Positions 14,610-43,670 of a DNA stretch of 49,808 bases are shown here, in pieces. Position 1 is the stretch's first letter. The number at the start of each line of letters is the position of its first letter. Source of the stretch: Prochlorococcus sp. AG-402-L23 (lineage in GTDB: Bacteria; Cyanobacteriota; Cyanobacteriia; PCC-6307; Cyanobiaceae); contig QCIO01000009.1 of the NCBI GenBank assembly GCA_003216635.1, positions 1-49,808 on the forward strand. The letters run 5' to 3'. A model generated the notes under the pieces. That model did no database searches. It saw nothing but the letters and a program-made list of their open reading frames with translations, and was not told the DNA's origin. A program made the position numbers and the translations under genes.

Positions 14610-16427
14610 CTAATCGCACGTGAGGAGAAGATTTCTTATCGGATTTAATAAATCCTCATATTTTTTCCAATATCCAGAAGAATTAGAATTAATTTTTTGC
14701 CTTACCTGCGCACTACTTGCAGTAAATACAGTCCTTTTACTTTTTTGAGGTGAGAGATAATTATCATTCCATTCCCAATCAAGCCAATTTATTAAGCTTC
14801 GAATATTTTCTTTGGGATTTTTGACTACCTCATCATGGTCATAACTATATATAATTGATCCAAATTTGTCTTTGTACTCACCCATAAGTTCCAAATGAAA
14901 TAGATATAGTTCGGTAATATCATTTAAAGAGCTTGCAAAACTTTGATTCAAGAAATTAGTCCTGTAAATGGAAAGGATATTATCAAGTGGGTTCCTTTTA
15001 CAATAAATAATCCTTGCATTAGGAAAAAAATTATAGATAATTGGACAATATAAAAAATTAAATAAATTTTTATCTGTATAGATTTTTTTTTGTGAACCGA
15101 TAAGCATAACTTTTTCATCATAAAGCTTTTTAATATCTATCAAATCGTCATTTTTCAGAAGGGATTCCTCTAAATAAAAAACCTCTCCCATATCCTTAAC
15201 CTCAGGATTAAGACTCAAAATGCTCTCCAACAATGTACTTCCACACCTTGGCATACCAACAATAAATAAATATCGATTACTATCAATTTTTTTCTCTAAG
15301 TTAAGTTTATTGTTTATTTTGATTTTTCTATAGTATTGACCTGTATTTAACTTTCTTCTCAAATCAGATGGTTGGAGTTTTATTTTTTCTTCATTAGCGA
15401 TTTTAAGAAAATATGCACTTTTTTTATAATCTTTCTTATGATGATAGATATTTGCTTTTGAAAAGCATATATATATTTTTTCCGCTTGAGAGAGCTTTTC
15501 TATTTTTATGTTTAGAAGAGTTTTTAATTGGTCATTATGATTTGAAAAATCATACATAGTTGATAATTCATAAAAACTATTTGAATTAAATTGGTCCTTC
15601 AATAAGATTTCTATGTGTGTCTTTATAGACAAATCTAATAACCCTAAATTCCTATACATGACTCCCAAATTAAACCTAAATGGGATGAAATCCGGGAAAT
15701 TATTTATACCCTCCTTTAAAATAAATATTCCTTTTTCTAATTCATTATTTTTAAAATAAAGATCACTCAAAGTAAGATATAAAATTTTCTCCTTACTAAA
15801 TAATTTTTTTAATTTTAAAAGAACTTCTTCTGCTTTTATATATTTTTTTTTATTAATAAATATCTTTGAGATTAAAATTTCCCTCTGAAAATGTAAGAAG
15901 CTATCTTTTGGTAATTTTAAATTTTTCAATAATTCTTTAGCCTCTTCATTTTGAAAAGATTCAGTAAGAATATCAGCTTTTAAAATTTTATATATTTGAT
16001 TATTAGGTTGTAGCTTTATTGCAAAATCAATAGAAAGTAATGCATCCTTAAAGGATTTAAAAGCTCTGTATGTGATTGACAAATTATAGTAAATATCAGA
16101 ATTAGATTTTTCTAATTTTTTTGCTGCAAATAGTGTTTTCAAAGCATCATTAAAGTTGTTCTCTTTCCTCAAAATTTCAGCTAGTAATATATAAGGCTTG
16201 ATAATTAAAGGATATTTCTTAATAGACAAAAAAAATAAGTTTTTAGCAATCTTTAGATTATTAATCTCTCTATTAAAAAGTCCATATGAAATAAGTAAAT
16301 CATATGTATAAATCTTTTGTTTAATTAATTTTTTATAAATTTCATTTGCTTGATATAAATTTCCTTCTTTATGCTTCTCTTTTGCAATTTGAATAGATTT
16401 TGATATTTCTGATGTATCGTATTCCAT
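14610..16427 (-). CDS. TPR-sulfotransferase fusion protein (between the two porins)
   Basis: A 605-residue protein. Residues 1 to about 380 are tetratricopeptide-like helical repeats (for example NNFNDALKTLFAAKKLEKSN, SFKDALLSIDFAIKLQPNN). From about 385 a sulfotransferase domain starts with the 5'-phosphosulfate loop FIVGMPRCGSTLLESIL and continues with IIYCKRNPLDNILSIYR, the 3'-phosphate binding motif. It should transfer sulfate from PAPS to a sugar, peptide or other acceptor; the TPR array may bind the acceptor. It lies on the same strand as both porins, 38 bp from the copy-1 start region and 72 bp past the copy-2 terminator. Confidence 0.88.
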   Translation of the reverse strand: MEYDTSEISKSIQIAKEKHKEGNLYQANEIYKKLIKQKIYTYDLLISYGLFNREINNLKIAKNLFFLSIKKYPLIIKPYILLAEILRKENNFNDALKTLFAAKKLEKSNSDIYYNLSITYRAFKSFKDALLSIDFAIKLQPNNQIYKILKADILTESFQNEEAKELLKNLKLPKDSFLHFQREILISKIFINKKKYIKAEEVLLKLKKLFSKEKILYLTLSDLYFKNNELEKGIFILKEGINNFPDFIPFRFNLGVMYRNLGLLDLSIKTHIEILLKDQFNSNSFYELSTMYDFSNHNDQLKTLLNIKIEKLSQAEKIYICFSKANIYHHKKDYKKSAYFLKIANEEKIKLQPSDLRRKLNTGQYYRKIKINNKLNLEKKIDSNRYLFIVGMPRCGSTLLESILSLNPEVKDMGEVFYLEESLLKNDDLIDIKKLYDEKVMLIGSQKKIYTDKNLFNFLYCPIIYNFFPNARIIYCKRNPLDNILSIYRTNFLNQSFASSLNDITELYLFHLELMGEYKDKFGSIIYSYDHDEVVKNPKENIRSLINWLDWEWNDNYLSPQKSKRTVFTASSAQVRQKINSNSSGYWKKYEDLLNPIRNLLLTCD

Positions 16428-17963: not shown

Positions 17964-20132
17964 ATGAGTGGATTCGGGAGTAACGAAAGAAAAACTAAAA
18001 AGTCAGAAGAAAAAAAAATCAGGACTTTACAAAGAGATAAACTAATATCCAGTGCATTTTCTTTACATTCAAATGGAAAAATTAAACAAGCAGCTGATTT
18101 ATATAATTATTTAATTCAAAATAAAATTTATGATCCTAGGGTACTTAATAATCTTGGCAGTATTTATTCAAATCTTAAGAAGTTTGATAAAGCAATATTG
18201 TTATTTGATGAATCAATTAAAAAATTCCCAAGTAGCCTAGAGGCATATATCAACTTAGCAAACGTGATGGTTATTAAGGGCAAAAGTGATATTGCTAAAA
18301 AGATTTTGAATAAAGTTATTGAATTAAATCCTAAGTATTTGAAGCCTTATTCAAACATAGCAGGAATATTCGTTGGAGAAGGTAATTTCAAAAAAGCGGA
18401 ATTATTTTTGAGGAAGAGTTTAGAAATCAGTCCAAAAGATATTAATACTTTGGTCAATTTAGCATGTGTATTGAAAGATTTAGGGAATCCTAAGCAAGCT
18501 GAGAGATTCTTAAGAGATGCTCTTGAAATAAATCCCAAATTTAATTCTGCCCTAGTCAATTTAGGTGCAGTTTTAAATGAATTGGGAAAAATTGATGAAG
18601 GAGAACAATTATTAAAAAAAGCACTCAAAATAAATCCAAATTCACCAATGGCACTTAATAACTTAGGAAATATATTATCGAAGAAAAATAAAAACAAGGA
18701 GGCCGAACTCTTTTATCGAAAAGCTATTGAACTAAAATCAGATTTTTTTCTCGCTTATGATAATCTTGGTTCTCTTCTATCAAAACAGGGTAATCTTATT
18801 GAGGCAGAAAAATTTATTGAAAAAGCTATAAATTACAATCCTAAATTTGAGTTAGCTTATGTTAATTTGGGATCAATTAAGATTGATCTCGATAAGTTAT
18901 TGGAGGCAGAAGAATTATTTCTTAACGCAATTAAAATTAATGAAAAATATGGTTATGCATATAGAAATCTTTTTAGACTTTATGAAAAGACCAACAATTT
19001 AAAAAAATTAAAAAATAAGTTAAAAACTTTAAAGGAAAATAAAAGTATCATTAATGAAAAATTGTTGTTTCAAGCGAGAATTTTTTTTAGAGAAAAAGAC
19101 TACATCAAAGCAAAAAAATCAATTGACCAAGTTTCTAATGAATGGATAAAAAATACTGATCATCAAACAAATCTTCTTTATTGGTCTTATAAAGCATTTA
19201 TTGAAGAAAAAGTTGAAAATTTTGATGAAGCCTTTAAATGTTTTGAGAAAAGTCAACTTAATCTAAAATATGAAATTTTTAATCCAAAGGTTTTTCAAAA
19301 TTACATAAATACTTACAGAAAAAATTTAGATAATAAAAATTTTGTTGTTAAGAATAATTCACTAAAGGAAAATGTATTTTCTCCAGTTTTTTTAATAGGA
19401 TTCCCAAGATCAGGAACTACATTGCTAGATACAATTTTAAGAAGTCATCCAGAAATTGATGTTGTAGAAGAAAAACCATTAATAAATTCTGTAGAGCAAG
19501 TTGTAAAATCAAAATTCAAATATTCTCTTGATGAACTATATAAACTTAATGAAAATGACTTAGAAGTTTTACGAAATCACTATTTAGAAATCTTAAAGAA
19601 TAATTGTGATAATAAAAACGCAAAAATCTTAATTGATAAATTTCCATTCCAAACTGTTTGCTTACCTCTTATAAATTTATTGTTTCCAAATGCAAAAATA
19701 ATTTTTACGCATAGAAACCCATACGATACAGTCCTATCATGCTTCCAACAAGCATTTGAGCCAAACAATGCAATGTCTAACTTCCGAAGTATAGAATCGG
19801 CTTCGTTAATTTATGATATGACCATGAATACTTGGTTGGACTACAAGAAAAAATTAAAAATAAATTTTATTACTTCTAAATACGAAGATTTAATAGTGGA
19901 TTTTGATAAGCATATTTTAAAAATTTTAGATTTCTTGAATATTAGTTGGGACGAGAATATTAAAAATTATAGAAATACTGCTCAAAAAAGAGGGAAAATA
20001 AATACACCTTCTTCTTCACAAGTTATCCAACCACTTTACAAATCATCAATTGAAAAATGGAAACATTATGAGAAATATTTTAAAAACTCTAATCATTATC
20101 TTCATAAATGGAAATTATATTTTAAGTACTGA
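17964..20132 (+). CDS. TPR-sulfotransferase fusion protein
   Basis: A 722-residue protein with a charged N-terminus, about ten canonical TPR units between residues 30 and 390 (YSNLKKFDKAILLFDESI, GNFKKAELFLRKSLEISP, GNPKQAERFLRDALEINP and so on), and a C-terminal sulfotransferase domain from about residue 470. The latter has FLIGFPRSGTTLLDTILRSH (PAPS 5' loop) and IIFTHRNPYDTVLSCFQQ (3'-phosphate motif). It is related in plan to the gene between the porins but is not a recent copy. It is expected to sulfate a cell-surface or secreted product; the acceptor is unknown. Confidence 0.9.
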   Translation: MSGFGSNERKTKKSEEKKIRTLQRDKLISSAFSLHSNGKIKQAADLYNYLIQNKIYDPRVLNNLGSIYSNLKKFDKAILLFDESIKKFPSSLEAYINLANVMVIKGKSDIAKKILNKVIELNPKYLKPYSNIAGIFVGEGNFKKAELFLRKSLEISPKDINTLVNLACVLKDLGNPKQAERFLRDALEINPKFNSALVNLGAVLNELGKIDEGEQLLKKALKINPNSPMALNNLGNILSKKNKNKEAELFYRKAIELKSDFFLAYDNLGSLLSKQGNLIEAEKFIEKAINYNPKFELAYVNLGSIKIDLDKLLEAEELFLNAIKINEKYGYAYRNLFRLYEKTNNLKKLKNKLKTLKENKSIINEKLLFQARIFFREKDYIKAKKSIDQVSNEWIKNTDHQTNLLYWSYKAFIEEKVENFDEAFKCFEKSQLNLKYEIFNPKVFQNYINTYRKNLDNKNFVVKNNSLKENVFSPVFLIGFPRSGTTLLDTILRSHPEIDVVEEKPLINSVEQVVKSKFKYSLDELYKLNENDLEVLRNHYLEILKNNCDNKNAKILIDKFPFQTVCLPLINLLFPNAKIIFTHRNPYDTVLSCFQQAFEPNNAMSNFRSIESASLIYDMTMNTWLDYKKKLKINFITSKYEDLIVDFDKHILKILDFLNISWDENIKNYRNTAQKRGKINTPSSSQVIQPLYKSSIEKWKHYEKYFKNSNHYLHKWKLYFKY

Positions 20133-22413: not shown

Positions 22414-22465
22414 CCAATTTTTAAACTGAAAATTGCTTTTTTATAAAAATTTTTGGAATTAAGGC

Positions 22466-22544
22466 TTTTATAGATGACTGTTATGAACTAAGATCTTATG
22501 AGCGGGGCGTGGCGCAGCTTGGTAGCGCGGGTGCTTTGGGAGCA
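22466..22544 (+). repeat. Duplicated tRNA-Pro promoter and 5' half, upstream copy
   Basis: This 79 bp stretch matches 23519-23597 with one or two mismatches (offset 1,053): leader from TTTTATAGATG to CTTATGAG and the first 42 nt of tRNA-Pro. Weaker similarity continues leftward to about 22430, including a shared TTTTTTATAAAAA. Confidence 0.93.
22503..22544 (+). pseudogene. tRNA-Pro(TGG) 5' fragment
   Basis: Identical to the first 42 nt of the intact tRNA-Pro (acceptor 5' strand, D arm, anticodon stem and loop with TGG) and breaking off at GGGAGCA in the 3' side of the anticodon stem. The continuation TGCCTTTTTAATAACG is unrelated, so no functional tRNA can form. Its promoter region is retained, so it may still be transcribed. 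Confidence 0.92.
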
Positions 22545-23466: not shown

Positions 23467-23555
23467 TCATTTTCTAGACTCAAAAGTGATTTTTTATAAA
23501 AAATTTAGCAATTTGGTCTTTTATAGATGTCTGTTATGAACTAAGATCTTATGAG

Positions 23556-23629
23556 CGGGGCGTGGCGCAGCTTGGTAGCGCGGGTGCTTTGGGAGCACTA
23601 GGTCGCAGGTTCGAATCCTGTCGCCCCGA
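23556..23629 (+). tRNA. tRNA-Pro (anticodon TGG), intact copy
   Basis: A 74-nt cloverleaf: CGGGGCG pairs with CGCCCCG, D arm GCGCAGCTTGGTAGCGC, anticodon loop TTTGGGA (TGG), T arm CAGGTTCGAATCCTG and discriminator A. CCA follows in the genome. This is the only complete tRNA-Pro in the window; partial copies of its 3' half recur downstream and its 5' half lies upstream, which marks it as a repeated integration target. Confidence 0.97.
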
Positions 23630-23652
23630 CCATTTAAAAACCAAGTCATACT

Positions 23653-24285: not shown

Positions 24286-24319
24286 ATCAAGAATAATTGA
24301 TATATCAATTATTTTTGAT
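24286..24319. promoter_or_regulatory. Two putative ArsR operators between arsR and gap
   Basis: ATCAA-N6-TTGAT occurs at 24286-24301 and again at 24304-24319, centres 18 bp apart. The site pair lies 49 bp upstream of arsR and 29 bp upstream of the gap start, so one regulator could control both directions. The overlap of the two sites also creates a 22 bp perfect palindrome at 24292-24313. Confidence 0.75.
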
Positions 24320-24347
24320 ATATATTATATTAGGTTTTGATATTTCT

Positions 24348-25376
24348 ATGAAAATTGGAATTAACGGATTTGGAAGAATTGGTAGGTTAGTTTTAAGAAT
24401 TTTATGGGAAAGAAAAGATATTGAAATAACTCATATAAATGAAATTAATGGGGATTCTTTAACTGCATCTCATTTACTAGAGTTTGATTCTGTTCATGGT
24501 AAATGGAATAAAAAAATAGCTTCGAATGACAACGAAATATTAATTGAAGATAAAAAAATTTCCTTTACATCAATAAAGAACTATCTTGATGTTCCATGGA
24601 ATAAATCTTCGGTTGATCTTGTTTTGGAATGTACAGGTAAAAACAAAACTCCTAAAGAATTAAATCCATACTTTGATTCTCTTGGAATAAAAAAAGTAAT
24701 AGTTGCTTGTCCTGTGAAAGGAATTGTGGGAGGGGAACAAGCACTTAATATTGTTTATGGAATTAATCAAGCCCTTTATAAACCTGAAAAAAATAAATTA
24801 ATTACAGCAGCATCCTGTACTACAAATTGCTTGGCTCCCATCGTAAAAGTTGTTAATGAAAATTTCTCAATTAAACATGGGGTTATAACAACTATTCATG
24901 ACGTTACAAATACACAATCTCCAGTAGATTTTTACAAAAGTGACTTAAGAAGAGCAAGAGGATGCATGCAAAGCTTAATACCTACTACCACTGGATCAGC
25001 TAATGCGATTGCTGAAATTTTCCCTGAATTAGAAGGAAAACTAAATGGTCATGCAGTAAGGGTTCCACTTCTAAACGCCTCATTAACCGACATAGTTTTT
25101 GAATTAAATAAGGAAGTAACTGAAGAGCAAGTAAATAATGAATTTAAAAAAGCATCTGAAACATACTTAAAAGGTATTCTTGGATACGAGGAGAGACCCT
25201 TAGTATCCGCTGATTACTTAAATGACTGTAGAAGTTCAATAATTGATGGACTTTCAACGATGGTTGTAAATTCTAATTTATTAAAGATTTATGCCTGGTA
25301 TGACAATGAGTGGGGTTATAGTTGCAGGCTTGCAGATCTTACTTCTTATGTAATTGAGAAAGAAAATAAATTTTAG
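24348..25376 (+). CDS. gap: Glyceraldehyde-3-phosphate dehydrogenase, ArsJ-associated type
   Basis: From ATG 24348 the enzyme is 342 residues: NAD-binding [17 protein letters not shown], the catalytic Cys157 in [11 protein letters not shown], a substrate loop TTTGSANA and C-terminal [11 protein letters not shown]. Seventeen extra in-frame codons upstream (MIYQLFL...) overlap the operator region and were rejected. With arsJ 5 bp downstream it forms the known two-gene arsenate pathway: the enzyme makes 1-arseno-3-phosphoglycerate from arsenate and glyceraldehyde 3-phosphate, and ArsJ exports it. It is not the photosynthetic Gap2. Confidence 0.92.
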
Positions 25377-25381
25377 TTTTT

Positions 25382-26638
25382 ATGAAGTTATCTAGCCTTC
25401 AACAATATAGTGTCGTTACCGCAAACTATTGGGCATTTACTCTTACTGACGGTGCATTGAGAATACTAGTTGTTGGTCATTTTCATGAACTTGGTTATTC
25501 AACTCTGCAAATTGCTTTACTTTTTCTTTTCTATGAATTTTTTGGAATAATTACAAATCTTTTTGGAGGATGGATAGGAGCAAGATATGGGTTGAGACTA
25601 ACTTTATGGATAGGAACGATTCTGCAAATTCTTGCTCTCTTCATGCTGATTCCAGTCAAAGAGAATTGGTCAATAATCTTTAGCGTCTCATACGTTATGT
25701 TAGCCCAAGCACTTAGTGGGGTAGCAAAAGATTTAAATAAAATGAGTGCAAAAAGTGCAGTTAAATCAATAGTTCCAGATTCAGAAGAGAATAATCAAAA
25801 TAGTCAAAAACAATTATTTAAGTGGGTTTCAATTTTAACAGGATCTAAAAATGCACTTAAGGGTGTTGGTTTCTTCCTAGGGGGTCTCTTATACAAGCTA
25901 TTGGGCTTTAATAATGCAGTGGGAATAATGGGTTTAGGTCTATGCTTCGCATTCTTTTTAACTTTATGTCTTCCTAAAGATTCAGGGAAAATGAAAAGAA
26001 AGCCAATTTTTAAAGACCTTTATTCAAAGTCTAAAGGTATTAATATTCTTTCAAGTGCAAGGTTTTTCTTATTTGGAGCAAGAGATGTCTGGTTTGTAGT
26101 AGCTCTTCCAGTATTTTTAGACATTTCTTTTGGATGGGATTATTTAAAAATAGGGCTGTTCTTGGGTGGATGGATAATAATCTATGGTTTCTTTCAAGTA
26201 TTAGCTCCATTACTTAGAAAAGTATGGGGGAAAAATAATAGCCCAACAAAAACTACCGTTCAATTTTGGGGACTTATCTTGACGGTTATTCCTTTATTTA
26301 TTGCAGGAGCATTAAACGGTGACAAATCATTAGGTCCTGTAATTGTTATTGGATTAATAATATTCGGCTTTGTTTTTGCAATGAATTCATCTACTCATTC
26401 CTACTTGATTTTGGCTTATTCAGATAATGAGAAAGTAAGTTTAAATGTTGGTTATTACTATATGGCTAATGCAGCGGGAAGATTATTTGGAACCCTGCTA
26501 TCGGGCTTATTATTTATGCTCGGTAAAAATGCCACTATTGGTATGCAGTATTGTTTATATACTTCATCTATTTTGATTTTTATTGCTTGGCTTACTAGTT
26601 CTAAATTACCTTCCTATTCTTCCAACAGCTTCAATTGA
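25382..26638 (+). CDS. arsJ: ArsJ, 1-arseno-3-phosphoglycerate efflux permease (MFS)
   Basis: A 418-residue major-facilitator protein with about 11-12 membrane spans. It starts SLQQYSVVTANYWAFTLTDGALRILV and has the MFS loop GGWIGARYGLR; these match the ArsJ family. It exports the unstable arseno-sugar acid made by the upstream dehydrogenase, removing arsenate from the cell. Its last 33 bp overlap the 3' end of the convergent pstS gene. Confidence 0.92.
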   Translation: MKLSSLQQYSVVTANYWAFTLTDGALRILVVGHFHELGYSTLQIALLFLFYEFFGIITNLFGGWIGARYGLRLTLWIGTILQILALFMLIPVKENWSIIFSVSYVMLAQALSGVAKDLNKMSAKSAVKSIVPDSEENNQNSQKQLFKWVSILTGSKNALKGVGFFLGGLLYKLLGFNNAVGIMGLGLCFAFFLTLCLPKDSGKMKRKPIFKDLYSKSKGINILSSARFFLFGARDVWFVVALPVFLDISFGWDYLKIGLFLGGWIIIYGFFQVLAPLLRKVWGKNNSPTKTTVQFWGLILTVIPLFIAGALNGDKSLGPVIVIGLIIFGFVFAMNSSTHSYLILAYSDNEKVSLNVGYYYMANAAGRLFGTLLSGLLFMLGKNATIGMQYCLYTSSILIFIAWLTSSKLPSYSSNSFN

Positions 26639-27577
26639 TTTTTTTAAAATTTCACCTTTCAAGGGAACGAAACCCAAGGCAGGAGCTTTATCTTGGTATT
26701 CATCGCTGAGCAATTTATAGAATGTATCTTGAATTGCCTTAGTATTCCTTCCATTACCTGTTTCATAAGCAAGTATCCAAGTTAAGGTTGCTATTGGATA
26801 AGCTCCTTTAGCAGTAGGGTTTGGATTTTTACCAGCCAAGTTCTTATCAAGAGTTATTCCATTTAAAGCTATCGCGCCTGATTCAGTATTAGGGGTAACG
26901 AATTCACCAGATAGGTTTTGAAGTGCAGCAGCCTTAACATTACCTTTAATGTATGACTGGTTTACATAACCAATTGCGCCAGGAGTGTTTTGAATAACAC
27001 CTGCAACACCTGAATTGCCTTTTGCTCCAACTCCCGAAGGCCATTTAACAGATTTACCAGTACCTAGATTCCAGGTTTTAGAGAAAGCCTCCATAGAATT
27101 TGTAAAAGCTTTAGTCGTGCCTGAACCGTCGGAACGATGGGCCCAAGTTAATTTACCTGACTTACATCCTAATTCCTTCCAGTTTTTTATCATTCCCATT
27201 GCTACTTGAACAGCTTGTTCTTGTGTTAGTTTCAGGTCGCAATCATAGTTATATCCAAACGCAATTGTTCCACCTACCATCGGTATTTGAACAAGTCCTC
27301 TAGTAACTTTTTTTATATCAGCTTCTTTCATTGGATCGTCAGAGGCTCCAAAATTAACAGTTTCATCTATGAAAGCTTTTCTTCCAGATCCAGAACCTAC
27401 TGCTTGGTAATTAACTCTAGGGCCTCCAGATTTAGCTAAGTCAAAAAACCACCTAGTATAAATCTTCGAAGGAAATGATGCACCAGCTCCACTCAATCTC
27501 TTTGATGCCATCGCAGATGGAGAAAGTATCAATGAAATTGCAGAAGATAAAATGAGAGTTTTTTTGAAAATACTCAT
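26606..27577 (-). CDS. pstS: PstS, periplasmic phosphate-binding protein
   Basis: A 323-residue precursor with signal peptide (MSIFKKTLILSSAISLILSPSAMA) and the phosphate-binding motifs LSGAGASFPSKIY, YQAVGSGSGRKAF, NFGASDDPM and HRSDGSGTT. It feeds the high-affinity Pst ABC transporter; the other pst genes are not here. Phosphate scavenging and arsenate exclusion meet in this protein, which fits its pairing with gap-arsJ. It is convergent with arsJ and has two ATCAA-N6-TTGAT sites 72-106 bp before its start. Confidence 0.95.
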   Translation of the reverse strand: MSIFKKTLILSSAISLILSPSAMASKRLSGAGASFPSKIYTRWFFDLAKSGGPRVNYQAVGSGSGRKAFIDETVNFGASDDPMKEADIKKVTRGLVQIPMVGGTIAFGYNYDCDLKLTQEQAVQVAMGMIKNWKELGCKSGKLTWAHRSDGSGTTKAFTNSMEAFSKTWNLGTGKSVKWPSGVGAKGNSGVAGVIQNTPGAIGYVNQSYIKGNVKAAALQNLSGEFVTPNTESGAIALNGITLDKNLAGKNPNPTAKGAYPIATLTWILAYETGNGRNTKAIQDTFYKLLSDEYQDKAPALGFVPLKGEILKKSIEAVGRIGR

Positions 27578-27955: not shown

Positions 27956-28004
27956 CGGGTGCTTTGGGAGCACTAGGTCGCAGGTTCGAATCCTGTCGCC
28001 CCGA
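27956..28004 (+). repeat. tRNA-Pro 3' core, exact copy
   Basis: The 49 nt are identical to positions 23581-23629 of the intact tRNA-Pro (anticodon arm to discriminator A); CCA is not present. The flank before it (TTGGAGGG) differs from the tRNA 5' half, and the flank after it (CCAAGTCATACTAG plus a hairpin) is homologous to the region after the intact gene. It is read as an attachment-site half left by integration. Confidence 0.95.
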
Positions 28005-28393: not shown

Positions 28394-28804
28394 TTAAATA
28401 TCTATTGCTTGAGGTTGTCCTTCTAGTTTTTCTATTTGTCTAAATAGTTTCCGCATTTCTGCTTTATTCTCTCTATCAATAACTCCAGTTTGTAGAAAAG
28501 CTAGAGAAGTTTTGATTGCATCAACCGCAGTATATGGTCGAGTTCTTTCAGATAAACCTATATCCAATAATCTTCTGCATAATGCAGGAGCAGCACAACT
28601 AATTATCCCTATTACTTCTTCTAACTTGTAATTAATAGCAGTAGAAATAAGGTTGTCTGCATCAGGATGTTTTCTCCATCTCAGCATTTTATATCTAGAA
28701 ATCTTTGATATTTCTGCACATTCTTCCCAACTCTTACCTTCTGCTTTTGCAAGCAGTCCCCTCCTTATGTTTTCTGGAATCTCATTAGAAATAGTAAGTG
28801 ACAT
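28394..28804 (-). CDS. Helix-turn-helix protein, terminase-small-subunit-like (copy 1)
   Basis: A 136-residue all-helical protein. An N-terminal HTH (RRGLLAKAEGKSWEECAEISKISRYKMLRWRKHPD) is followed by a helical middle (LEEVIGIISCAAPALCRRLLDI...AVDAIKTSLAFLQ) and a C-terminal coil (EMRKLFRQIEKLEGQ). This plan and several positions match the 151-residue protein at 32230-32685 and resemble the small-terminase-like HTH proteins of phages and satellites. DNA binding is likely; a packaging role is inference. Confidence 0.65.
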   Translation of the reverse strand: MSLTISNEIPENIRRGLLAKAEGKSWEECAEISKISRYKMLRWRKHPDADNLISTAINYKLEEVIGIISCAAPALCRRLLDIGLSERTRPYTAVDAIKTSLAFLQTGVIDRENKAEMRKLFRQIEKLEGQPQAIDI

Positions 28805-29002: not shown

Positions 29003-31051
29003 ATGACTTCTACTGAAAAAAAAGCCCCATCTAAAAAGGAAGAATCTGTATTTGATTGGTTAAAAACACTTCCTCCAAGAGAGGGTAATATTTTTTTCTC
29101 ATTGTGCGAAGATGGCAAAAAAACTGTGAATAAATCAAAGCTTAAGGAAGCCATATTTGATGCTGGATTGCAAATAAATGATTTTAGGTTAAGAAGTTTT
29201 TTCAAAAAACTTGATAGGCATAGATCTAATGATATTGAGTTTGAAGATTTTAATTCAATTATAAAAGCAGGAGGTCTCCTAATTGAAAAGGCTTTGAGAG
29301 GAGAACTCGCTGTTCCTGATTTTAGGGATTTCTCAATGAATTTAGACAAAATTTATGATGAGATAAGACCTAATAGATCTGGGGATTTAGCTAAATATAT
29401 TCCTCCTCTTGCCGAGGTTGATCCAGAGCAATTTGGTATTGCAGTTGTTACGACAGATGGGCAAATATACCAAAGAGGTGATTCAGATGTTGATTTTTCT
29501 ATTCAATCGATGTGCAAGGTATTTAACTATTCCATAGTAGTTGAGAATTTAGGTTTAGATAAAGTTAATAGACACGTTGGCGCTGAACCATCTGGAAGGC
29601 AATTTGATGACTTAACATTGATGGTTAAAGGAATGGGAGGAAGCAGTTTAAATCCTAATAATCAAATTCCTTTTAATCCTATGGTTAATGCTGGTGCAAT
29701 AATGACCACGGGTTTAATTAATCCAAAAAACTCAACTGGACAGAGACTTGATTATGTAAGGGAACAGTTTGGAAGAATAATAGGATGGAATGCTATGGAA
29801 AACTCAGGAATAAAAAGGCCAAGATTTAATAAAAATATGGCTCGACAAGAAAACTTTAAAGGCTACAACAATATTGCTACGGGTTTCTTACTAATGGCAA
29901 CTGGTAATATTCCACATTCCGACTCACTTCTTCCTGAGGATGCTCATGAAGAAAAAGAATATGAATACGATTTTTATATTGAACCTGCAGTAGTAAATGC
30001 ACTTAAGGTTTACTTTAGTATTTGCTCTTTAGAAATGACGGCTAAAGACGTTGCAATGGGAGCAGCCACGCTCGCGAACGGAGGAGTATGTCCAATCACT
30101 CAAGATAGAGTTCTTAGTCAAAGTACAGTACGCAATGTCCTTCCTGTTGTACAGATGGCTGGAATGTATAACAGCAGTGGTAAATTTTTCCAAGAAATAG
30201 GATTGCCATCTAAGAGTGGAGTGGGAGGGGGCATTTTACTAATCGTTCCCCAATTAATGGGTATATGTATTTTTTCACCCAGATTAGATTCAGTGGGAAA
30301 TAGTGTAAGAGGATTAGAAGTAGCAAGAAAAATAACCCAAAAATATTTGGTTCATCTTTTTGATGGGACCATGACAGATACAAAAAGGATTGACCCTAAA
30401 GTTCCTATTTCAAAATGGCGAGCTAGTAGTTGTGGTGAAGCAATATGGGCAGCTAGTAATGGAGATGTTAGAACGCTAGAACGACTTACCAGTCAACAAA
30501 GAGATCTTCAAGCAGGTGATTATGATATTAGAACACCATTGCATCTAGCATCTGCCGAAGGTCAAACTGAAGTTGTGAGATATTTATTAAGCATTGGGGT
30601 ACAACCAATTCCTGATCGTTGGGGTGGGTATCCTATTTCAGATGCAAGAGATAATGGTCATAATGAAATTGTTGAATTATTCACTAAATTAGATGTTAAC
30701 TATTCAGAACCAGTTCATTTAGTTGAAGACCCGGATGGAGAAACAGATGAGATGGCAACTTTTGATAATGAAATGATGGTTATAGAATTGCTTTTTGCTG
30801 CTTTTGAAAACGATGTGCCAGGAATAAGACAATTAGTTGCTAAAAGCATACCTGTTCATGCTGGGGATTATGATTTACGAACTGCGTTGCATTTAGCAGC
30901 AGCTGAAGGCAGTTTGCAAGCAGTTAAATATTTAGTTGAGCATGGTCATCCACTAAATGTTCGTGACCGTTGGGGAGCAACTCCTTTAGATGAAGCAAAA
31001 AGAGAAAAGAGAGACTCCGTCATTAAATATTTATCAAGTTTAAAAAAATAA
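29003..31051 (+). CDS. glsA: Glutaminase with EF-hand-like N-terminus and C-terminal ankyrin repeats
   Basis: A 682-residue enzyme hydrolysing glutamine to glutamate and ammonia. Residues 17-105 form an EF-hand-like helical domain (FFSLCEDGKKTVNKSKLKEA...DRHRSNDIEFEDF). The beta-lactamase-like glutaminase domain (about 106-450) has Tyr132 in KYIPPLAE, the Ser169-x-x-Lys172 pair in IQSMCKVF, Asn229 in NPMVNAGAI, Tyr337, Tyr389 in GMYNSSG and Val407 in SKSGVGGG. Ankyrin units follow at 475-560 and 600-680 (DIRTPLHLASAEGQTEVVRYLL, DLRTALHLAAAEGSLQAVKYLV). The order matches animal kidney-type glutaminase rather than minimal ~310-residue bacterial GlsA. It is the main cargo of its module. Confidence 0.92.
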   Translation: MTSTEKKAPSKKEESVFDWLKTLPPREGNIFFSLCEDGKKTVNKSKLKEAIFDAGLQINDFRLRSFFKKLDRHRSNDIEFEDFNSIIKAGGLLIEKALRGELAVPDFRDFSMNLDKIYDEIRPNRSGDLAKYIPPLAEVDPEQFGIAVVTTDGQIYQRGDSDVDFSIQSMCKVFNYSIVVENLGLDKVNRHVGAEPSGRQFDDLTLMVKGMGGSSLNPNNQIPFNPMVNAGAIMTTGLINPKNSTGQRLDYVREQFGRIIGWNAMENSGIKRPRFNKNMARQENFKGYNNIATGFLLMATGNIPHSDSLLPEDAHEEKEYEYDFYIEPAVVNALKVYFSICSLEMTAKDVAMGAATLANGGVCPITQDRVLSQSTVRNVLPVVQMAGMYNSSGKFFQEIGLPSKSGVGGGILLIVPQLMGICIFSPRLDSVGNSVRGLEVARKITQKYLVHLFDGTMTDTKRIDPKVPISKWRASSCGEAIWAASNGDVRTLERLTSQQRDLQAGDYDIRTPLHLASAEGQTEVVRYLLSIGVQPIPDRWGGYPISDARDNGHNEIVELFTKLDVNYSEPVHLVEDPDGETDEMATFDNEMMVIELLFAAFENDVPGIRQLVAKSIPVHAGDYDLRTALHLAAAEGSLQAVKYLVEHGHPLNVRDRWGATPLDEAKREKRDSVIKYLSSLKK

Positions 31052-31248: not shown

Positions 31249-31294
31249 GTGCTTTGGGAGCACTAGGTCGCAGGTTCGAATCCTGTCGCCCCGA
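31249..31294 (+). repeat. tRNA-Pro 3' core copy
   Basis: Forty-six nucleotides identical to the 3' part of tRNA-Pro from GTGCTTTGGG to the discriminator A. The upstream flank (AAGCCCA) and downstream flank (TCAGTCATACC) are shorter and more diverged than at 27956; no clear terminator hairpin follows. Confidence 0.95.
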
Positions 31295-31426: not shown

Positions 31427-32233
31427 ATGTCTGACCTCAAATTTAAAGAAATACAAGAAATATTATCCATTCTTGGTCGTCATGATTATTTGGCCACGCA
31501 TAGTGAGCTAGATCTAAGATTTGAGCGACAGCAATTAGATAAATATGATGATCTAGATCCTAATTTAGTTGCATATGAAGTAGGGAGCAAAAGAATTCGA
31601 TTAACAGCTTTTTTTACAAAATGGCCTAATCTTGTAGTCTCTGCATTTCTTTTGGAGTTATTAGATGAAGCAAAACAGCTTGAATTAAATGATGCAGAGA
31701 TTGCCGAAATAGAACAATGCAAACAAATAGCACTTAATTTACGACATAGAACAGACGATCAAGGTAATCCAACTCTCCCAAGTCCTTATTTTGAAAATAT
31801 AAGAGAGAATATTCTTGCTGATTTAGATAAAGCTAAGCAGGTAATTTGGATCTGCATGTATCTTTTTACAGACTATAAAATTGCAAGTAAAGTTTTAGAA
31901 AAATATCGTGAAGGTCTATCTGTAGAAATTATCCTTCAAGATGATGAAAAAAATAGAAGGGAGCAATTACAAAGCAGATATTGGAATAAAATTCCCTCAC
32001 TTCTATGGTGGTACCCTAAAACTGATGGAGGAATACTTCATCACAAATTTTGCATTATTGATGGAAGAGTTGTTTGGGATGGTTCATTCAATTTCACTCC
32101 TACTGCCGCCACAAAAAATAAAGAGTCATATGTCTCCGATAATAATATTGAAACCATCTCCAAATATGCAGACCAATTTAAAGAAATTAAAAAGTATATA
32201 GCAGAAGAAGAACGTTTGAGAAATCTTTTTTAA
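31427..32233 (+). CDS. Phospholipase-D-superfamily protein with a single HKD motif, probable nuclease
   Basis: A 268-residue protein. The C-terminal half (about 122-268) is a PLD domain with one HKD motif: H205-x-K207-x4-D212 in LHHKFCIIDGRVV, then G219-S-x-N222 in DGSFNF. Single-HKD proteins act as dimers and are mostly nucleases (Nuc type). The N-terminal ~110 residues are helical and not recognised. It could cut nucleic acid in defence or element mobility, or be a phosphodiesterase; the sequence does not decide. It overlaps the convergent terminase-like gene by 4 bp. Confidence 0.85.
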   Translation: MSDLKFKEIQEILSILGRHDYLATHSELDLRFERQQLDKYDDLDPNLVAYEVGSKRIRLTAFFTKWPNLVVSAFLLELLDEAKQLELNDAEIAEIEQCKQIALNLRHRTDDQGNPTLPSPYFENIRENILADLDKAKQVIWICMYLFTDYKIASKVLEKYREGLSVEIILQDDEKNRREQLQSRYWNKIPSLLWWYPKTDGGILHHKFCIIDGRVVWDGSFNFTPTAATKNKESYVSDNNIETISKYADQFKEIKKYIAEEERLRNLF

Positions 32234-32685
32234 TTAGCTTCTACATCAATAATTCGTTTACCTTCTAACGCATTAATTCTCTCTTCCTGGAATTCAATAG
32301 CTTCTTTAATATCAACTTCCGATACACTACTTCTATTTTCCGAAAGAATTGTTCTAGCCGCTTCGATTCTTGTATAAGCTCTATTGCGTGGATCTCTCAT
32401 AATATCCCGTAAAGTCTTTACCGCTTCGGGTGCAGTATCAATCAATAAATTATCTCTTTCCTCTAATTTTGTATTTCTAATATCCTTTTGGTACGTCTTA
32501 CAGTCTGGGTGCTGTTTAACATACTCCCGAAGTCTTTTGTAATTTGTTTTGGCTTTCTCTGCACTATCTTTCCAGTTGAACCCCTGCCCCCGATACTTCA
32601 ACGCAAGAATAATATCTTCGGGAAGTGGGACTTCGGTTATATGTGGTCTACCAGCTTTAGTTCTTTTCTTATCTTCTATTAGCAA
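32230..32685 (-). CDS. Helix-turn-helix protein, terminase-small-subunit-like (copy 2)
   Basis: A 151-residue helical protein with a basic N-terminus (KKRTKAGRPHITEVPLPED), HTH region ALKYRGQGFNWKDSAEKAKTNYKRLREYVKQHPD, helical middle (LLIDTAPEAVKTLRDIMRD...AYTRIEAARTILS) and C-terminal coil (EAIEFQEERINALEG). It parallels the protein at 28394 in order and in several residues (W of the HTH, HPD, IEKLEG/INALEG). The plan resembles phage small terminase HTH proteins. Two such genes in neighbouring tRNA-delimited modules suggest a shared element function. Confidence 0.65.
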   Translation of the reverse strand: MLIEDKKRTKAGRPHITEVPLPEDIILALKYRGQGFNWKDSAEKAKTNYKRLREYVKQHPDCKTYQKDIRNTKLEERDNLLIDTAPEAVKTLRDIMRDPRNRAYTRIEAARTILSENRSSVSEVDIKEAIEFQEERINALEGKRIIDVEAN

Positions 32686-32765
32686 CCTTATGCACCCAAC
32701 CCGATATCGTCAGATAACCCCCACTCTCTACGAGCTTTTTTATTGGATGTTGTCTCATATTGCAA

Positions 32766-32789
32766 AAGGGTAGCTAGAAGGGTAGCTCG
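32766..32789. repeat. Tandem direct repeat pair DR8 (12 bp period)
   Basis: AAGGGTAGCTAG then AAGGGTAGCTCG. The left flank is a remnant of the terminator (CTCTACGAGCTTTTTTATT) and TTGTCTCATATTGCAAA, as before DR7, but no tRNA core precedes it. It closes the nuclease module, or is the left end of the next module whose core was lost. Confidence 0.8.
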
Positions 32790-32860
32790 TTTGAAGTACT
32801 TTGATCTAAATTGTTCCTACTTATAAGTTCAATCGGTGCAAGTAGTAAGCGTTTCATTAA

Positions 32861-34669
32861 TTATCTTTTTAATTCTCTTAAAACATCCTCAAGTTTTTTT
32901 GTAAAAGTTTCTGTATTAAACAATTCTCCATTACTCTTCAATTTAAACAACTTACTTTTGAGAGCCTTGATTTTACTTGGATTTTTTGAATAAAAAATTA
33001 CTTTTTGCTTATATTCATCAATTGTGTTTGCTATTAATTCCTCTAAACCAATTGATCTTAAAATACTTGAACTTACCCTTGATGCAAAATTTTTACCTTG
33101 AAGGGTGATTACTGGGAGTCCAGACCACAATGCCTCAATTGTGGTAGTGTGTCCATTGTAATTAAAAGTATCTAGCAATAAATCACCAACTATGTATCTT
33201 GAAAGATGTTTTTCATAAGTTGGTTCTCTATCCGCAAAGATAATTTTAGAAAGATCTATATCTCTCATTTCAAAAAATTCTAAAAGATTTTTCATAGCGT
33301 ATTTATTTGGCTTTTTAATCCATAGAAAGCTATCTTCAATTGAATTAAGAATGTCACACCAACATGAAACAGTTTTTAAATTTAATTTTTGAGGTCTATG
33401 AAAAGCAACCATAATAAAACTCTCTTGTTTGAAATTATTAAAATAATTTTTAGTAACTTTATCTGAGATTTTTGTAGTATCGTCAAAACACATAAATGTT
33501 CCAGGAATACTTACTATTTTTTCAGTAAAATTGTCGACTTCCGTTTCAGGGATAACATGATTATCTGCCAATAAGTAATCTATTTGATCAGATCCAGTAG
33601 TCGAAGGATATGCTAAATAACTAATTTGTATAGGTGCTACCTTTTTAGATAATATTCCCATTCTTGATCCTGCAGTGTATCCCATTAAATCAATAATGAA
33701 ATCTAGTTTATCTGATCTAATTATATTTGCCGCTTCGTCATCAGATTTAACGGATATATCTCTGTAAACATCAAATAGGTTTGATATTTTGTTCGTAATT
33801 TGATCTTTTTTTGTATTAATAGAATAACCATAAATTTCGAATTCTTTACGATTATGCTTCTTAATAACTCCTGAGATTAGAAATGAAACTGGATGAAATA
33901 CAAAATTGTTGGAAATATAACCTATCCTTAATTTTTTATTATTTTGAGATTTTAATTTTATATGATCCCTTCTAAAATTTGAATTAAAAAAATTTATTGC
34001 TCTTAATTTTCTTACGTGGTTTTCTTCATCTAAATAAAGAAAGGTTAAAGGGTCACCTCCTTGAAAAAACTTAACACCAAAATTTTTTAATCTAGGTTCA
34101 AATTTATTAATAATCCTCCATTCAAATGTTTTTAATAACAAGTTATAAAAAGCAACTATTGCGTTGCCATATGATGGGTTTAGATTAAGAGTTTTTATAT
34201 AAAAGTCCTTTGCTTTGTTATAGTCTTCAAGTGCATCGAATAATTGAGCCAAATTATAAACAACTAAATAATTCTTAGGATTGACTCTCAAAGCATTCAA
34301 AAAATATTTGATGGCTAATTTATACTCTCTTTGATTCTTATATATAATACCTAGATTATTAAGTGAGCTAAATAAATATTTGTTGAAATCCAAAGATTTC
34401 AACAAATATTTTTTTGCTTCGGAAATTTGATTTTCTTTTAGATATAAACTTCCTAAGTCACTTAATGAATTTGGATAATTTGGATTTTTTTCTATAGATT
34501 TTTTTAATAAATTTATAGCTTCTTTATTATTAGATCTAATGATATTTAAAAAAGCTAATTGATGTAACTGAAGATAGTCAATCTCATTTTTATCGTATAA
34601 ATTTTTTAGTAATTTTTCTGCTTTTTCATATTCTTTATTTAGTATTAGCTCATTGATATTTTTTTTCAT
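32861..34669 (-). CDS. TPR protein with SPINDLY/O-GlcNAc-transferase-like glycosyltransferase domain
   Basis: From ATG 34667-34669 the product is 602 residues: five or six TPR units up to about residue 190 (for example EYKLAIKYFLNALRVNPKNY, EDYNKAKDFYIKTLNLNPSY), then a GT41-type domain with KLRIGYISNNFVFHPVSFLI, FIIDLMGYTAGSRM and YIVGDLLLDTFNYNGHTTTIEALWSGLPVITLQG. It is likely to glycosylate protein or cell-surface targets. The longer frame starts at a TTG at 34699 and was not preferred. It is paired with the sulfotransferase gene upstream on the same strand. Confidence 0.9.
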   Translation of the reverse strand: MKKNINELILNKEYEKAEKLLKNLYDKNEIDYLQLHQLAFLNIIRSNNKEAINLLKKSIEKNPNYPNSLSDLGSLYLKENQISEAKKYLLKSLDFNKYLFSSLNNLGIIYKNQREYKLAIKYFLNALRVNPKNYLVVYNLAQLFDALEDYNKAKDFYIKTLNLNPSYGNAIVAFYNLLLKTFEWRIINKFEPRLKNFGVKFFQGGDPLTFLYLDEENHVRKLRAINFFNSNFRRDHIKLKSQNNKKLRIGYISNNFVFHPVSFLISGVIKKHNRKEFEIYGYSINTKKDQITNKISNLFDVYRDISVKSDDEAANIIRSDKLDFIIDLMGYTAGSRMGILSKKVAPIQISYLAYPSTTGSDQIDYLLADNHVIPETEVDNFTEKIVSIPGTFMCFDDTTKISDKVTKNYFNNFKQESFIMVAFHRPQKLNLKTVSCWCDILNSIEDSFLWIKKPNKYAMKNLLEFFEMRDIDLSKIIFADREPTYEKHLSRYIVGDLLLDTFNYNGHTTTIEALWSGLPVITLQGKNFASRVSSSILRSIGLEELIANTIDEYKQKVIFYSKNPSKIKALKSKLFKLKSNGELFNTETFTKKLEDVLRELKR

Positions 34670-34900
34670 TGAACAGTTAACAGTCAAGATATCTATCAAC
34701 GATTACTATTATAATTCTAAAAAAAAAATAAACTAATCTATGTTAAATTACAGAAAGATATTAAAAAATCAGCAAAATCTTTTAGACAATAACAGTTTTA
34801 AATATGGATATATTTTAAAAGCTAATATCTCATACGACTTGGTGAAAATAAGGGGAAATACTTATTAAATACAATAATTATGTGGTTAAAAAGGATAACT

Positions 34901-35533
34901 TTACTCATATCCGAATTCTTTAAGTAACGGGTAATTTATTTCATTAAATAAGTTTAATTCTTCACTGGAGATTTTCTCCTTCCAATCTGTTTTGGACCTG
35001 ACCCATTTTCCATCAAAAGTAGCGACTGTATCTCTAGAGGGTAATTTTTTACTAATAACATTTTTTTCTAAAAAAGTTTCAATCGATCTCAATACATATT
35101 CAAAATTAAAAAGTATATCTTCGTATCTTACAAGAAGCGTATTTGGCCTTTTTAATGGATTCCATGAAATTAAATGATCCTTCCATGTGCCAAAAGGATG
35201 ATTTCCAATAATTATGTCTTTCATTGGAATATTTTTATTATAGAAATTCCATAAACTTACACTAGCTGCTCTTCCATCTCTAATTATGTAAATTGATCTA
35301 TTATCGTCTTTATTTAATTTATGGGTTTTAATTATTGGGATAGAGCCTTTTTGAAATGTAATGGTTTTATTTTGACTATGTTCTATATGGCCTACAAAAT
35401 TTTCTAAAATTTTATTTCCACCAAGATCTTTAGGATAAATACTTGCCGTCTTAATTCCAAAGCAATTGAATAAAATTGTTCTTAAGAAAGTATTGCCACT
35501 TCTTGGGTATGATGCCAGCCAAGTAACCTTCAT
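34901..35533 (-). CDS. Sulfotransferase
   Basis: A 210-residue single-domain enzyme with the PAPS 5' loop at the very N-terminus (VTWLASYPRSGNTFLRTIL) and the 3'-phosphate motif SIYIIRDGRAASVSLWNF. TLLVRYEDIL and a late FDGKWVRSKTDWKEK (the RxxGxxx-like end) complete the family pattern. It probably sulfates a glycan or small molecule; the neighbouring GT41 gene suggests a surface-polysaccharide or glycoprotein setting. About 230 bp separate the two genes. Confidence 0.9.
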   Translation of the reverse strand: MKVTWLASYPRSGNTFLRTILFNCFGIKTASIYPKDLGGNKILENFVGHIEHSQNKTITFQKGSIPIIKTHKLNKDDNRSIYIIRDGRAASVSLWNFYNKNIPMKDIIIGNHPFGTWKDHLISWNPLKRPNTLLVRYEDILFNFEYVLRSIETFLEKNVISKKLPSRDTVATFDGKWVRSKTDWKEKISSEELNLFNEINYPLLKEFGYE

Positions 35534-35814: not shown

Positions 35815-35943
35815 TTACTTATGTATGCACAACCTTGCAATATCTTCCTACTTTTTAAGACTCATCAATTTGTTTTTAATAGCAACTAACCAGCTACAGC
35901 TTAATTTTTTTATTTAGCCTAGTGTCGCATTTTGCGTCGGGGG

Positions 35944-35987
35944 GCTTTGGGAGCACTAGGTCTCAAGCTCGAATCCTATCGCCCCGA
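35944..35987 (+). repeat. tRNA-Pro 3' core copy with point changes
   Basis: Forty-four nucleotides aligned with the tRNA 3' half; the T-arm region reads TCTCAAGCTCGAATCCTATCG instead of the native TCGCAGGTTCGAATCCTGTCG. CCAAGTCATACT follows, as at the intact gene, with a weakened terminator (CGAATTTTTCAACTCGC). It is an older copy than those at 27956 and 31249. Confidence 0.9.
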
Positions 35988-43634: not shown

Positions 43635-43670
43635 GTGCTTTGGAAGCACTAGGTTGCAGGTTCGATCCCT
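43635..43670 (+). repeat. Degenerate tRNA-Pro 3' core
   Basis: GTGCTTTGGAAGCACTAGG and TGCAGGTTCGATCCCT align with the anticodon arm and T arm of tRNA-Pro, with one base lost in the T loop (TTCGATCC for TTCGAATCC) and no acceptor 3' strand. No DR pair was found within 150 bp on either side. Confidence 0.8.

What the first reader, a model, noticed from the sequence alone, without database searches (positions are those of the whole stretch)
29003..31051. Glutaminase with the domain order of animal kidney-type glutaminase as mobile cargo
The protein combines an EF-hand-like N-terminal domain, a glutaminase domain with all key residues and C-terminal ankyrin repeats; motif strings such as VPDFRDF, AKYIPPLAE, NPMVNAGAI and LHLAAAEG run parallel to the animal enzyme from end to end. 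Most bacterial glutaminases are about 310 residues without these additions. It lies in a tRNA-Pro module flanked by matching repeats. In an ocean cyanobacterium it could release ammonia from scavenged glutamine, with ankyrin repeats controlling assembly.
Basis: partly seen in the sequence, partly recalled or inferred. Interest (0 to 1): 0.7.

Follow-up and report, generated by a model that had tools for sequence, protein, structure and literature searches.

The report
Mobile animal-like glutaminase in ocean bacteria
A Prochlorococcus genome carries, in a tRNA-flanked gene cassette, a glutaminase built like the animal enzyme; its closest kin are in unrelated ocean bacteria (SAR11 and others), so the gene seems to have crossed between phyla rather than descended within cyanobacteria.

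Summary
ORF 29003-31051 (682 aa) has an EF-hand_14 domain, a glutaminase domain with the ten catalytic and substrate residues checked, and two ankyrin blocks. It lies between exact 46-bp copies of the tRNA-Pro 3' end.

The reading needs three changes. (1) The architecture is bacterial too: full-length relatives occur in SAR11, SAR86, Planctomycetota, Bacteroidota and others. (2) In 26 of 26 marine sequences examined, most phosphate and filament residues of animal GLS are replaced, so animal-like assembly control is unlikely. (3) It is not cyanobacterial by descent: the nearest relatives outside Prochlorococcus (79-81% identical) are alphaproteobacterial single cells, and one clade with the other cyanobacterial EF-hand glutaminases is rejected (p 3.7e-6).

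The gene is rare where sampled: 3/266 Prochlorococcus, 11/297 and 2/110 in two alphaproteobacterial families, 2/107 SAR86 (seed genomes counted). In the five nearest alphaproteobacterial relatives it lies beside a tRNA-Ser or tRNA-Glu, in two between tRNA-Ser repeats. Best reading: a glutaminase cassette shared across phyla through tRNA-directed insertion. Enzyme activity, recombinase and direction of transfer are inferred.

The parts
29003..31051 (+). gls: 682-aa EF-hand / glutaminase / two-ankyrin-block protein
29090..29317 (+). EF-hand_14 N-terminal domain (aa 30-105); calcium binding not shown
   Evidence: 32 of 33 aligned relatives match the same family
29381..30361 (+). Glutaminase catalytic domain (aa 127-453): Y132, Q168, S169, K172, N229, E283, N290, Y337, Y389, V407
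30434..30700 (+). ankyrin block 1 (about aa 478-566), the one aligned with human KGA
   Evidence: helices within 469-563 in the model
30770..31045 (+). ankyrin block 2 (about aa 590-681), absent from the human KGA stretch used
   Evidence: helices within 590-681 in the model
23556..23632 (+). intact tRNA-Pro(TGG), head of the cassette array
27959..28004 (+). 46-bp tRNA-Pro 3' copy, left boundary of the gls cassette, 0 mismatches
31249..31294 (+). 46-bp tRNA-Pro 3' copy, right boundary of the gls cassette, 0 mismatches
35942..35987 (+). next tRNA-Pro 3' copy, 5 mismatches
28394..28804 (-). 136-aa ORF in the gls cassette, unknown; matching DNA (90%) in G113
24297..27577 (.). upstream cassette: ArsJ-associated GAPDH, ArsJ, PstS
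31427..35533 (.). downstream cassette: PLD-like protein (weakly like DrmC), TPR-glycosyltransferase, sulfotransferase

Best explanation
The gene encodes an accessory, probably cytosolic, serine-lysine glutaminase that hydrolyses glutamine to glutamate and ammonia (inferred from fold and conserved active site). It has the GLS domain order plus a second ankyrin block. Because the phosphate-contact and filament-contact residues of animal GLS are mostly replaced, it most likely works as a phosphate-independent tetramer, with the N-domain and ankyrin blocks as its own subunit or partner interface (inferred). It travels as a cassette of about 3.1-3.8 kb in Prochlorococcus, or 2.35 kb in two alphaproteobacterial cells, bounded by copies of a tRNA 3' end (boundaries shown, movement inferred from shuffled neighbours). 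A tyrosine recombinase acting in trans would insert and excise it (inferred; none was found on the window's contig). The same gene lineage was exchanged between Prochlorococcus and alphaproteobacterial plankton (from the tree; direction inferred as into Prochlorococcus). The benefit is probably nitrogen or glutamate balance when glutamine is in surplus or imported (inferred).
For: Architecture and fold: 8gwr_B, TM 0.89 by target length, 541 columns; mouse GAC 3ss4_B, Z 47.9, rmsd 2.1 over 379 residues. Ten catalytic and substrate residues identical in 26 of 26 marine sequences examined. Nearest relatives outside Prochlorococcus 79-81% identical over almost full length in alphaproteobacterial cells. 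Prochlorococcus plus these alphas: bootstrap 100, SH-aLRT 99. One clade of all cyanobacterial rows is rejected (p 3.7e-6), as is one clade of the rows labelled Pelagibacteraceae (p 8.5e-4). Patchy: 3/266, 11/297, 2/107, 2/110, seeds included. Cassette: exact tRNA-Pro repeats; at the same PstS-repeat junction 2 of 19 testable loci carry gls; different neighbours in G113 and G182. Alphas: gls 3' end 20-22 bp from a tRNA-Ser or tRNA-Glu 3' end in 4 of 5 and 0.77 kb in the fifth; tRNA-Ser repeats 2353-2354 bp apart around gls in L049 and L050. glnA-type gene next to gls in 25 of 26 main-clade SAR11 loci.
Against: No activity, oligomer or phosphate data. No recombinase on the window contig (the three integrase-type matches lie on other contigs and two are under the family cut-off). 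gls points along the tRNA in Prochlorococcus but against it in the alphas, and the tRNAs differ, so one identical element did not simply hop. 79-81% identity means the transfer is not recent. Most relatives are single-cell assemblies. Three of the five near alphas (L048, L051, L079) show no second tRNA copy near gls. Direction of transfer depends on rooting. The tree program warns of long branches (among them the cyanobacterial against the marine clade, and human with L086) and of odd amino-acid make-up in four rows; the Pelagibacteraceae test group was named after the quick tree had been seen. Insert-rich regions could be misaligned: phmmer pairs human F378, and MAFFT human F373, with window F275.
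Confidence: 0.75

Rival explanations
1. An old cyanobacterial gene inherited vertically and lost from most Prochlorococcus.
For: Synechococcus/Cyanobium have EF-hand glutaminases.
Against: The three of these examined have a TerB-like C-terminus, are 33-35% identical, and their kind forms another clade; the joint clade is rejected. Found in 3 of 266 genomes (2 of the 87 good ones), in a shuffling cassette.
Confidence: 0.03
2. Acquired from an animal or other eukaryote.
For: Animal KGA domain order; KGA is the best solved-structure match.
Against: Human KGA is 38% identical against 79-81% for alphaproteobacteria; the human row falls with Gemmatimonadota, Acidobacteriota and other bacteria outside the marine clade, on a long branch. 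No other eukaryote was in the tree.
Confidence: 0.02
3. A KGA-like enzyme regulated by phosphate-driven filament growth.
For: Same domains and overall fold; five distant bacterial relatives keep F355, F373 and Q416 exactly, and N375 in four of five.
Against: In 26 of 26 marine sequences R317 is Q, K320 D, R387 N, Y394 L, E397 A, K398 T; of seven filament contacts only F373 is kept (roles of residues from PMC10912226 section 8 and PMC13142944 section 4).
Confidence: 0.1
4. Phage-defence cargo: glutaminase with ankyrin sensor that upsets nitrogen metabolism on infection.
For: Cassette arrays often carry defence genes (recalled); the next cassette has a weakly DrmC-like protein.
Against: The only PADLOC matches of gls lie in the ankyrin part. 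In the main SAR11 clade the gene sits between suf genes and a glnA-type gene.
Confidence: 0.05

Closest known systems
Animal kidney-type glutaminase KGA (GLS), PDB 5uqe / 8gwr
   Same: EF-hand-like N-domain, Ser-Lys glutaminase domain, C-terminal ankyrin block; same order and fold
   Different: Second ankyrin block; longer activation-loop region and an extra stretch around aa 303-329; phosphate and filament residues mostly replaced
SAR11/SAR86/alphaproteobacterial EF-hand/Gls/2xANK glutaminases (loci L048-L077, L079, L080, L094)
   Same: 65-81% identity over most or all of the protein; two ankyrin blocks in the nine examined by motif; same replacements at most of the regulatory positions in the 23 examined
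   Different: Main SAR11 clade sits at a suf-gls-glnA position, not beside a tRNA in the three loci checked
Synechococcus/Cyanobium EF-hand/Gls/TerB glutaminases
   Same: EF-hand_14 and glutaminase domains
   Different: TerB-like instead of ankyrin C-terminus in the three examined; separate clade
Canonical bacterial glutaminase GlsA (E. coli YbaS, 1u60; B. subtilis, 1mki)
   Same: Catalytic domain (YbaS Z 36.6)
   Different: About 310-330 residues, no extra domains
Additive flexible genomic islands with tRNA 3' repeats (PMC10872708, passages) and tycheposons (Hackl et al. 2023, recalled)
   Same: Cargo modules bounded by repeated tRNA 3' ends
   Different: Window array lacks an integrase-type recombinase on its contig

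Membership tests
GLS-type (KGA) glutaminase | EF-hand-like N-domain, glutaminase, ankyrin in that order | tested here: met
GLS-type (KGA) glutaminase | Catalytic Ser-Lys pair, Tyr466 and substrate residues | tested here: met
   10 of 10 positions
GLS-type (KGA) glutaminase | Phosphate/activation-loop residues R317, K320, E325, R387, Y394, E397, K398 | tested here: not met
   Q, D, V, N, L, A, T in the window protein; F318 is kept
GLS-type (KGA) glutaminase | Filament interface F355, F373, N375, F378, Q379, D412, Q416 | tested here: not met
   1 of 7 kept (F373)
GLS-type (KGA) glutaminase | Glutaminase activity and oligomeric state | not testable with these tools
   needs purified protein
Additive island with tRNA 3' repeats | Direct repeats of a tRNA 3' end bounding exchangeable modules | tested here: met
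Tycheposon | Cargo next to a tRNA gene | tested here: met
Tycheposon | Tyrosine recombinase in the element | tested here: not met
   no PF00589 match (E <= 0.001) on the window's contig, which the window fills whole; matches on C16, C22, C6. A diverged recombinase could be missed
Tycheposon | Satellite-type packaging gene | tested here: inconclusive
   136-aa ORF has no informative family match

The most novel reading that the evidence does not exclude
One glutaminase cassette lineage circulates among several abundant surface-ocean lineages (Prochlorococcus, SAR11, another alphaproteobacterial group, SAR86) by insertion at different tRNA genes (Pro, Ser, Glu), so that the tRNA-repeat cassette pools of unrelated phyla are connected. 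The enzyme is a distinct regulatory class of GLS: two ankyrin blocks, and neither the phosphate switch nor the filament switch of the animal enzyme.
Probability: 0.55. Interest if true: 0.7.

Novelty: new variant of a known kind. Interest (0 to 1): 0.56.

Why it matters
It gives a concrete case of a large, intact metabolic gene shared between cyanobacterial and alphaproteobacterial plankton with candidate insertion sites visible on both sides, a tractable case of exchange between phyla in the open ocean. It also gives bacterial relatives of a drug-target enzyme that keep its domains but have lost its switches, while some other bacterial relatives keep about half or more of the filament-contact residues (but not the phosphate lysine); comparing the two could show when filament control arose.

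Tried and rejected
Phage and plasmid carriage: a close-relative scan of viral contigs found none; a scan with alignment A3 gave two loci matching only the catalytic part at 32-35%; 4 phage and 207 plasmid records match, all under 60% identity (rows shown 29-35%), 26 plasmid records covering at least 80% of the 434-aa query (which ends at the catalytic domain) and no phage record doing so. The 136-aa ORF was suspected by eye to be a small terminase: no support, so no claim is made. GC of gls (0.363; window 0.305) does not separate donors, as the relatives examined are 0.34-0.39. Ecological link: PMC12236433 (passage; part 1 of section 17) lists the glutaminase KO among genes correlated with HLI Prochlorococcus in a cyclonic eddy, but at KO level only, so it is a lead.

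Papers. Passages by term search: PMC12236433, PMC11982200 (40, reference list only), PMC10912226, PMC13142944, PMC8130709, PMC10872708, PMC12416821, PMC10734472. Sections read: PMC13142944 section 4 (45), PMC10912226 section 8 (46, 97), PMC12236433 section 17 part 1 (47). Not held, recalled only: Pasquali et al. 2017 (32, 44; its title seen in reference lists) and Hackl et al. 2023 (33). Searches listed, by title and start of abstract, no paper that I recognised as being on an ankyrin glutaminase of SAR11 or Prochlorococcus; lists 31 and 98 were cut (15 of 33 and 12 of 34 shown), and the library holds only part of the literature.

Rows dropped: 8 of 81 extracted proteins (under 480 aa or broken: L078, L098, L103, L109, L115, L116, L118, L124) before the 74-row tree, which adds the human row; the 33-row tree used 32 of the 73 plus the human row, picked by me. 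The residue counts use 26 of the 36 marine-clade rows. One search examined 25 Prochlorococcus loci: 21 had the repeat after PstS, of which L177 and L188 have too little downstream DNA; 4 had none. The others reach 1.2-1.6 kb past the repeat, which shows a gls placed as in the window or G113 but only just one placed as in G182; one search covers that gap. Of 25 SAR11-labelled tRNA-Ser loci one was cut; within about 1.5 kb gls is present only in the two genomes that supplied L051 and L048.

Full report
What is there. The ORF at 29003-31051 is real and intact. Pfam finds EF-hand_14 (aa 30-105), Glutaminase (127-453) and ankyrin families. The closest solved proteins by sequence are human glutaminases. 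An AlphaFold model from 33 sequences (mean pLDDT 83.0, pTM 0.84) matches near-full-length human KGA (8gwr_B, TM 0.89 by target length, rmsd 5.1, 541 columns); with other chains of KGA and GLS2 that include the ankyrin block the score falls to 0.71-0.87 and rmsd rises up to 13, so the placing of the ankyrin block is loose. N-domain plus catalytic domain match mouse glutaminase C closely (3ss4_B, Z 47.9, rmsd 2.1 over 379 residues). Differences from human KGA: a second ankyrin block (32 of 87 aligned columns identical between the blocks), a longer activation-loop region (low confidence, 194-227) and an extra stretch around 303-329.

Active site and regulation. On an alignment with human KGA, ten catalytic and substrate positions are identical in 26 of 26 marine sequences examined. 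The residues that bind phosphate or hold the activation loop (roles from PMC10912226 section 8, and PMC13142944 section 4) are replaced: R317Q, K320D, E325V, R387N, Y394L, E397A, K398T in the window protein; F318 is kept. Of seven filament contacts only F373 is kept. Five distant bacterial relatives with the same domains (L082, L084-L087) keep R387, E397, F355, F373 and Q416, with N375 in four of five and D or E at 412; but they have Y for F378, L for Q379 and E for the phosphate lysine K320, and Eudoraea (L081) keeps only N375 of the seven. The marine clade is therefore predicted to lack the animal switch although it has the animal domain order, and the filament contacts may in part predate animals. 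PMC13142944 says that bacterial glutaminases lack a conserved filament interface, judged on Bacillus enzymes; these distant relatives partly depart from that. The EF-hand loop was not shown to bind calcium.

Distribution. A glutaminase domain was found in 3 of 266 genomes of the genus (2 of the 87 good ones), all three this protein. Two of these contigs are Prochlorococcus AG-402-N08 and AG-321-E21 by length and match, which places the window's genome in Prochlorococcus. In 386 cyanobacterial genomes EF-hand_14 was found in 3: the window's own and two of genus g10, whose proteins have a TerB-like C-terminus. Thirty-three of them (L048-L077, L079, L080, L094) match 65-81% over most or all of the protein and are labelled SAR11 (Pelagibacteraceae), SAR86 or Alphaproteobacteria; L078 is similar but broken, L098 partial. 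Seven others at 34-48% come from Bacteroidota, Planctomycetota (two), Acidobacteriota, Gemmatimonadota, a delta-type proteobacterium and Kiloniellales. Of 33 aligned proteins 33 match glutaminase and ankyrin families and 32 match EF-hand_14. Sampled prevalence at E <= 1e-50: 11 of 297 in the family of the SAR11 cell of L058, seed included; 2 of 107 for SAR86 and 2 of 110 for the family of AG-404-B13, in both cases the genomes already known to have it.

Tree. In the 33-row tree the three Prochlorococcus proteins are sister to four alphaproteobacterial ones (100/99), inside a clade with SAR86 (94/87, not starred) and the main SAR11 group; Rubripirellula is next (100/100). The 74-row quick tree agrees on the Prochlorococcus-alpha group (99) and marine clade (100). 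Both runs warn of long branches. The human row has a long branch and groups with bacteria outside the marine clade; its exact place is unsure.

Mobility in Prochlorococcus. The array starts at tRNA-Pro (23556-23632). The 46-base 3' core recurs at 27959 and 31249 (0 mismatches), 35942 (5), and weakly at 43635 and 44283 (9 each). Allowing 3 mismatches the core is in 129 of 151 genus genomes and 52 of 52 good ones, up to 16 copies in one genome, with 0 in the backwards control in every row. The gls cassette is 3290 bp in the window, 3065 in G113 and 3798 in G182. G113 has the same ars cassette before it but a different one after; G182 has different neighbours and, in place of the 136-aa ORF, a gene for an SBP_bac_3 protein with a long internal insert. 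Of 21 loci (21 genomes) with the PstS cassette followed by the repeat, 19 have enough downstream DNA and 2 of these carry gls. No integrase-family match lies on the window's contig; there are three elsewhere, one over the cut-off.

Mobility in Alphaproteobacteria. In the five nearest relatives the gls 3' end faces the 3' end of a tRNA: tRNA-Ser(GGA) at 20-21 bp in L049, L050 and L051 and 0.77 kb in L048; tRNA-Glu(TTC) at 22 bp in L079. L049 has three tRNA-Ser 3' copies; those around gls are 2354 bp apart, and L050 has a decayed pair 2353 bp apart. L048 and L051 share one locus by lepA (lepA named on L048). At that tRNA-Ser, 24 uncut loci (of the 25 best fetched from the 53 genomes of the family of L051's cell, labelled Pelagibacteraceae) carry varied ORFs, and gls within 1.5 kb only in the two seed genomes; five loci keep DNA of the neighbouring transporter gene of L051 without gls. 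By my count 12 of the 53 genomes list an extra tRNA-Ser 3' copy of at least 58 bases and at least 92% identity. No tRNA was found in the five loci checked from SAR86 (L052, L053) and the main SAR11 clade (L055, L058, L065). In that main clade gls sits after a sufA-type gene in 24 of 26 loci and before an opposing glnA-type gene in 25 of 26, the exceptions being contig ends (genes named on L058 only).

Reading. A GLS-type glutaminase has a fixed place in part of SAR11 and a tRNA-cassette form in other Alphaproteobacteria and in Prochlorococcus. The chain enzyme -> glutamate and ammonia -> nitrogen benefit is inference from family knowledge. The gene's orientation relative to the tRNA differs between the two phyla and the tRNAs differ, so I infer repeated capture by tRNA-directed insertion rather than one element jumping unchanged.

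Novelty. The enzyme architecture and the tRNA-repeat cassette are each known kinds; the combination across phyla, with a switch-less two-ankyrin-block form, I rate as a new variant.

Noticed in passing
L045:10638-11774 (-), G182: Directly upstream of gls, same strand: an SBP_bac_3 protein split by an insert with two likely membrane segments (by eye), topology like a prokaryotic glutamate-receptor channel (GluR0 = Slr1257, recalled); weak match to Slr1257 (1ii5/1iit, E 5e-4), better to cyclohexadienyl dehydratases. A glutamate sensor beside a glutamate-making enzyme would be worth a look.
   Followed up: partly
window 22415-22544 and 23468-23597: A 130-bp copy (90%) of the tRNA-Pro upstream region with the first part of the tRNA (22503), followed by a 213-aa ORF: an apparent 5'-side duplication, opposite to the 3' copies.
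   Followed up: no
window 24297-27577: ArsJ, ArsJ-associated GAPDH and PstS in one tRNA-Pro cassette; the PstS-to-repeat end recurs in other Prochlorococcus with different following DNA.
   Followed up: partly
L147, L162 and other loci: Extra tRNA-Ser(GGA) 3' copies near the lepA locus, 687 and 1024 bp from the tRNA in L147 and L162: tRNA-repeat cassettes may be common in this SAR11-labelled family.
   Followed up: partly
window 31427-32233 (+): PLD-like protein in the next cassette resembles DrmC of DISARM systems, well under the NCBIfam cut-off.
   Followed up: no
window 14610-16427, 17964-20132, 32861-34699, 34901-35533: Several TPR, sulfotransferase and glycosyltransferase genes around the array.
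   Followed up: no
L082, L084-L087: Distant bacterial EF-hand/Gls/ANK proteins keep F355, F373, Q416 and mostly N375 of the animal filament contacts (not F378 or Q379), so filament formation may predate animals.
   Followed up: partly
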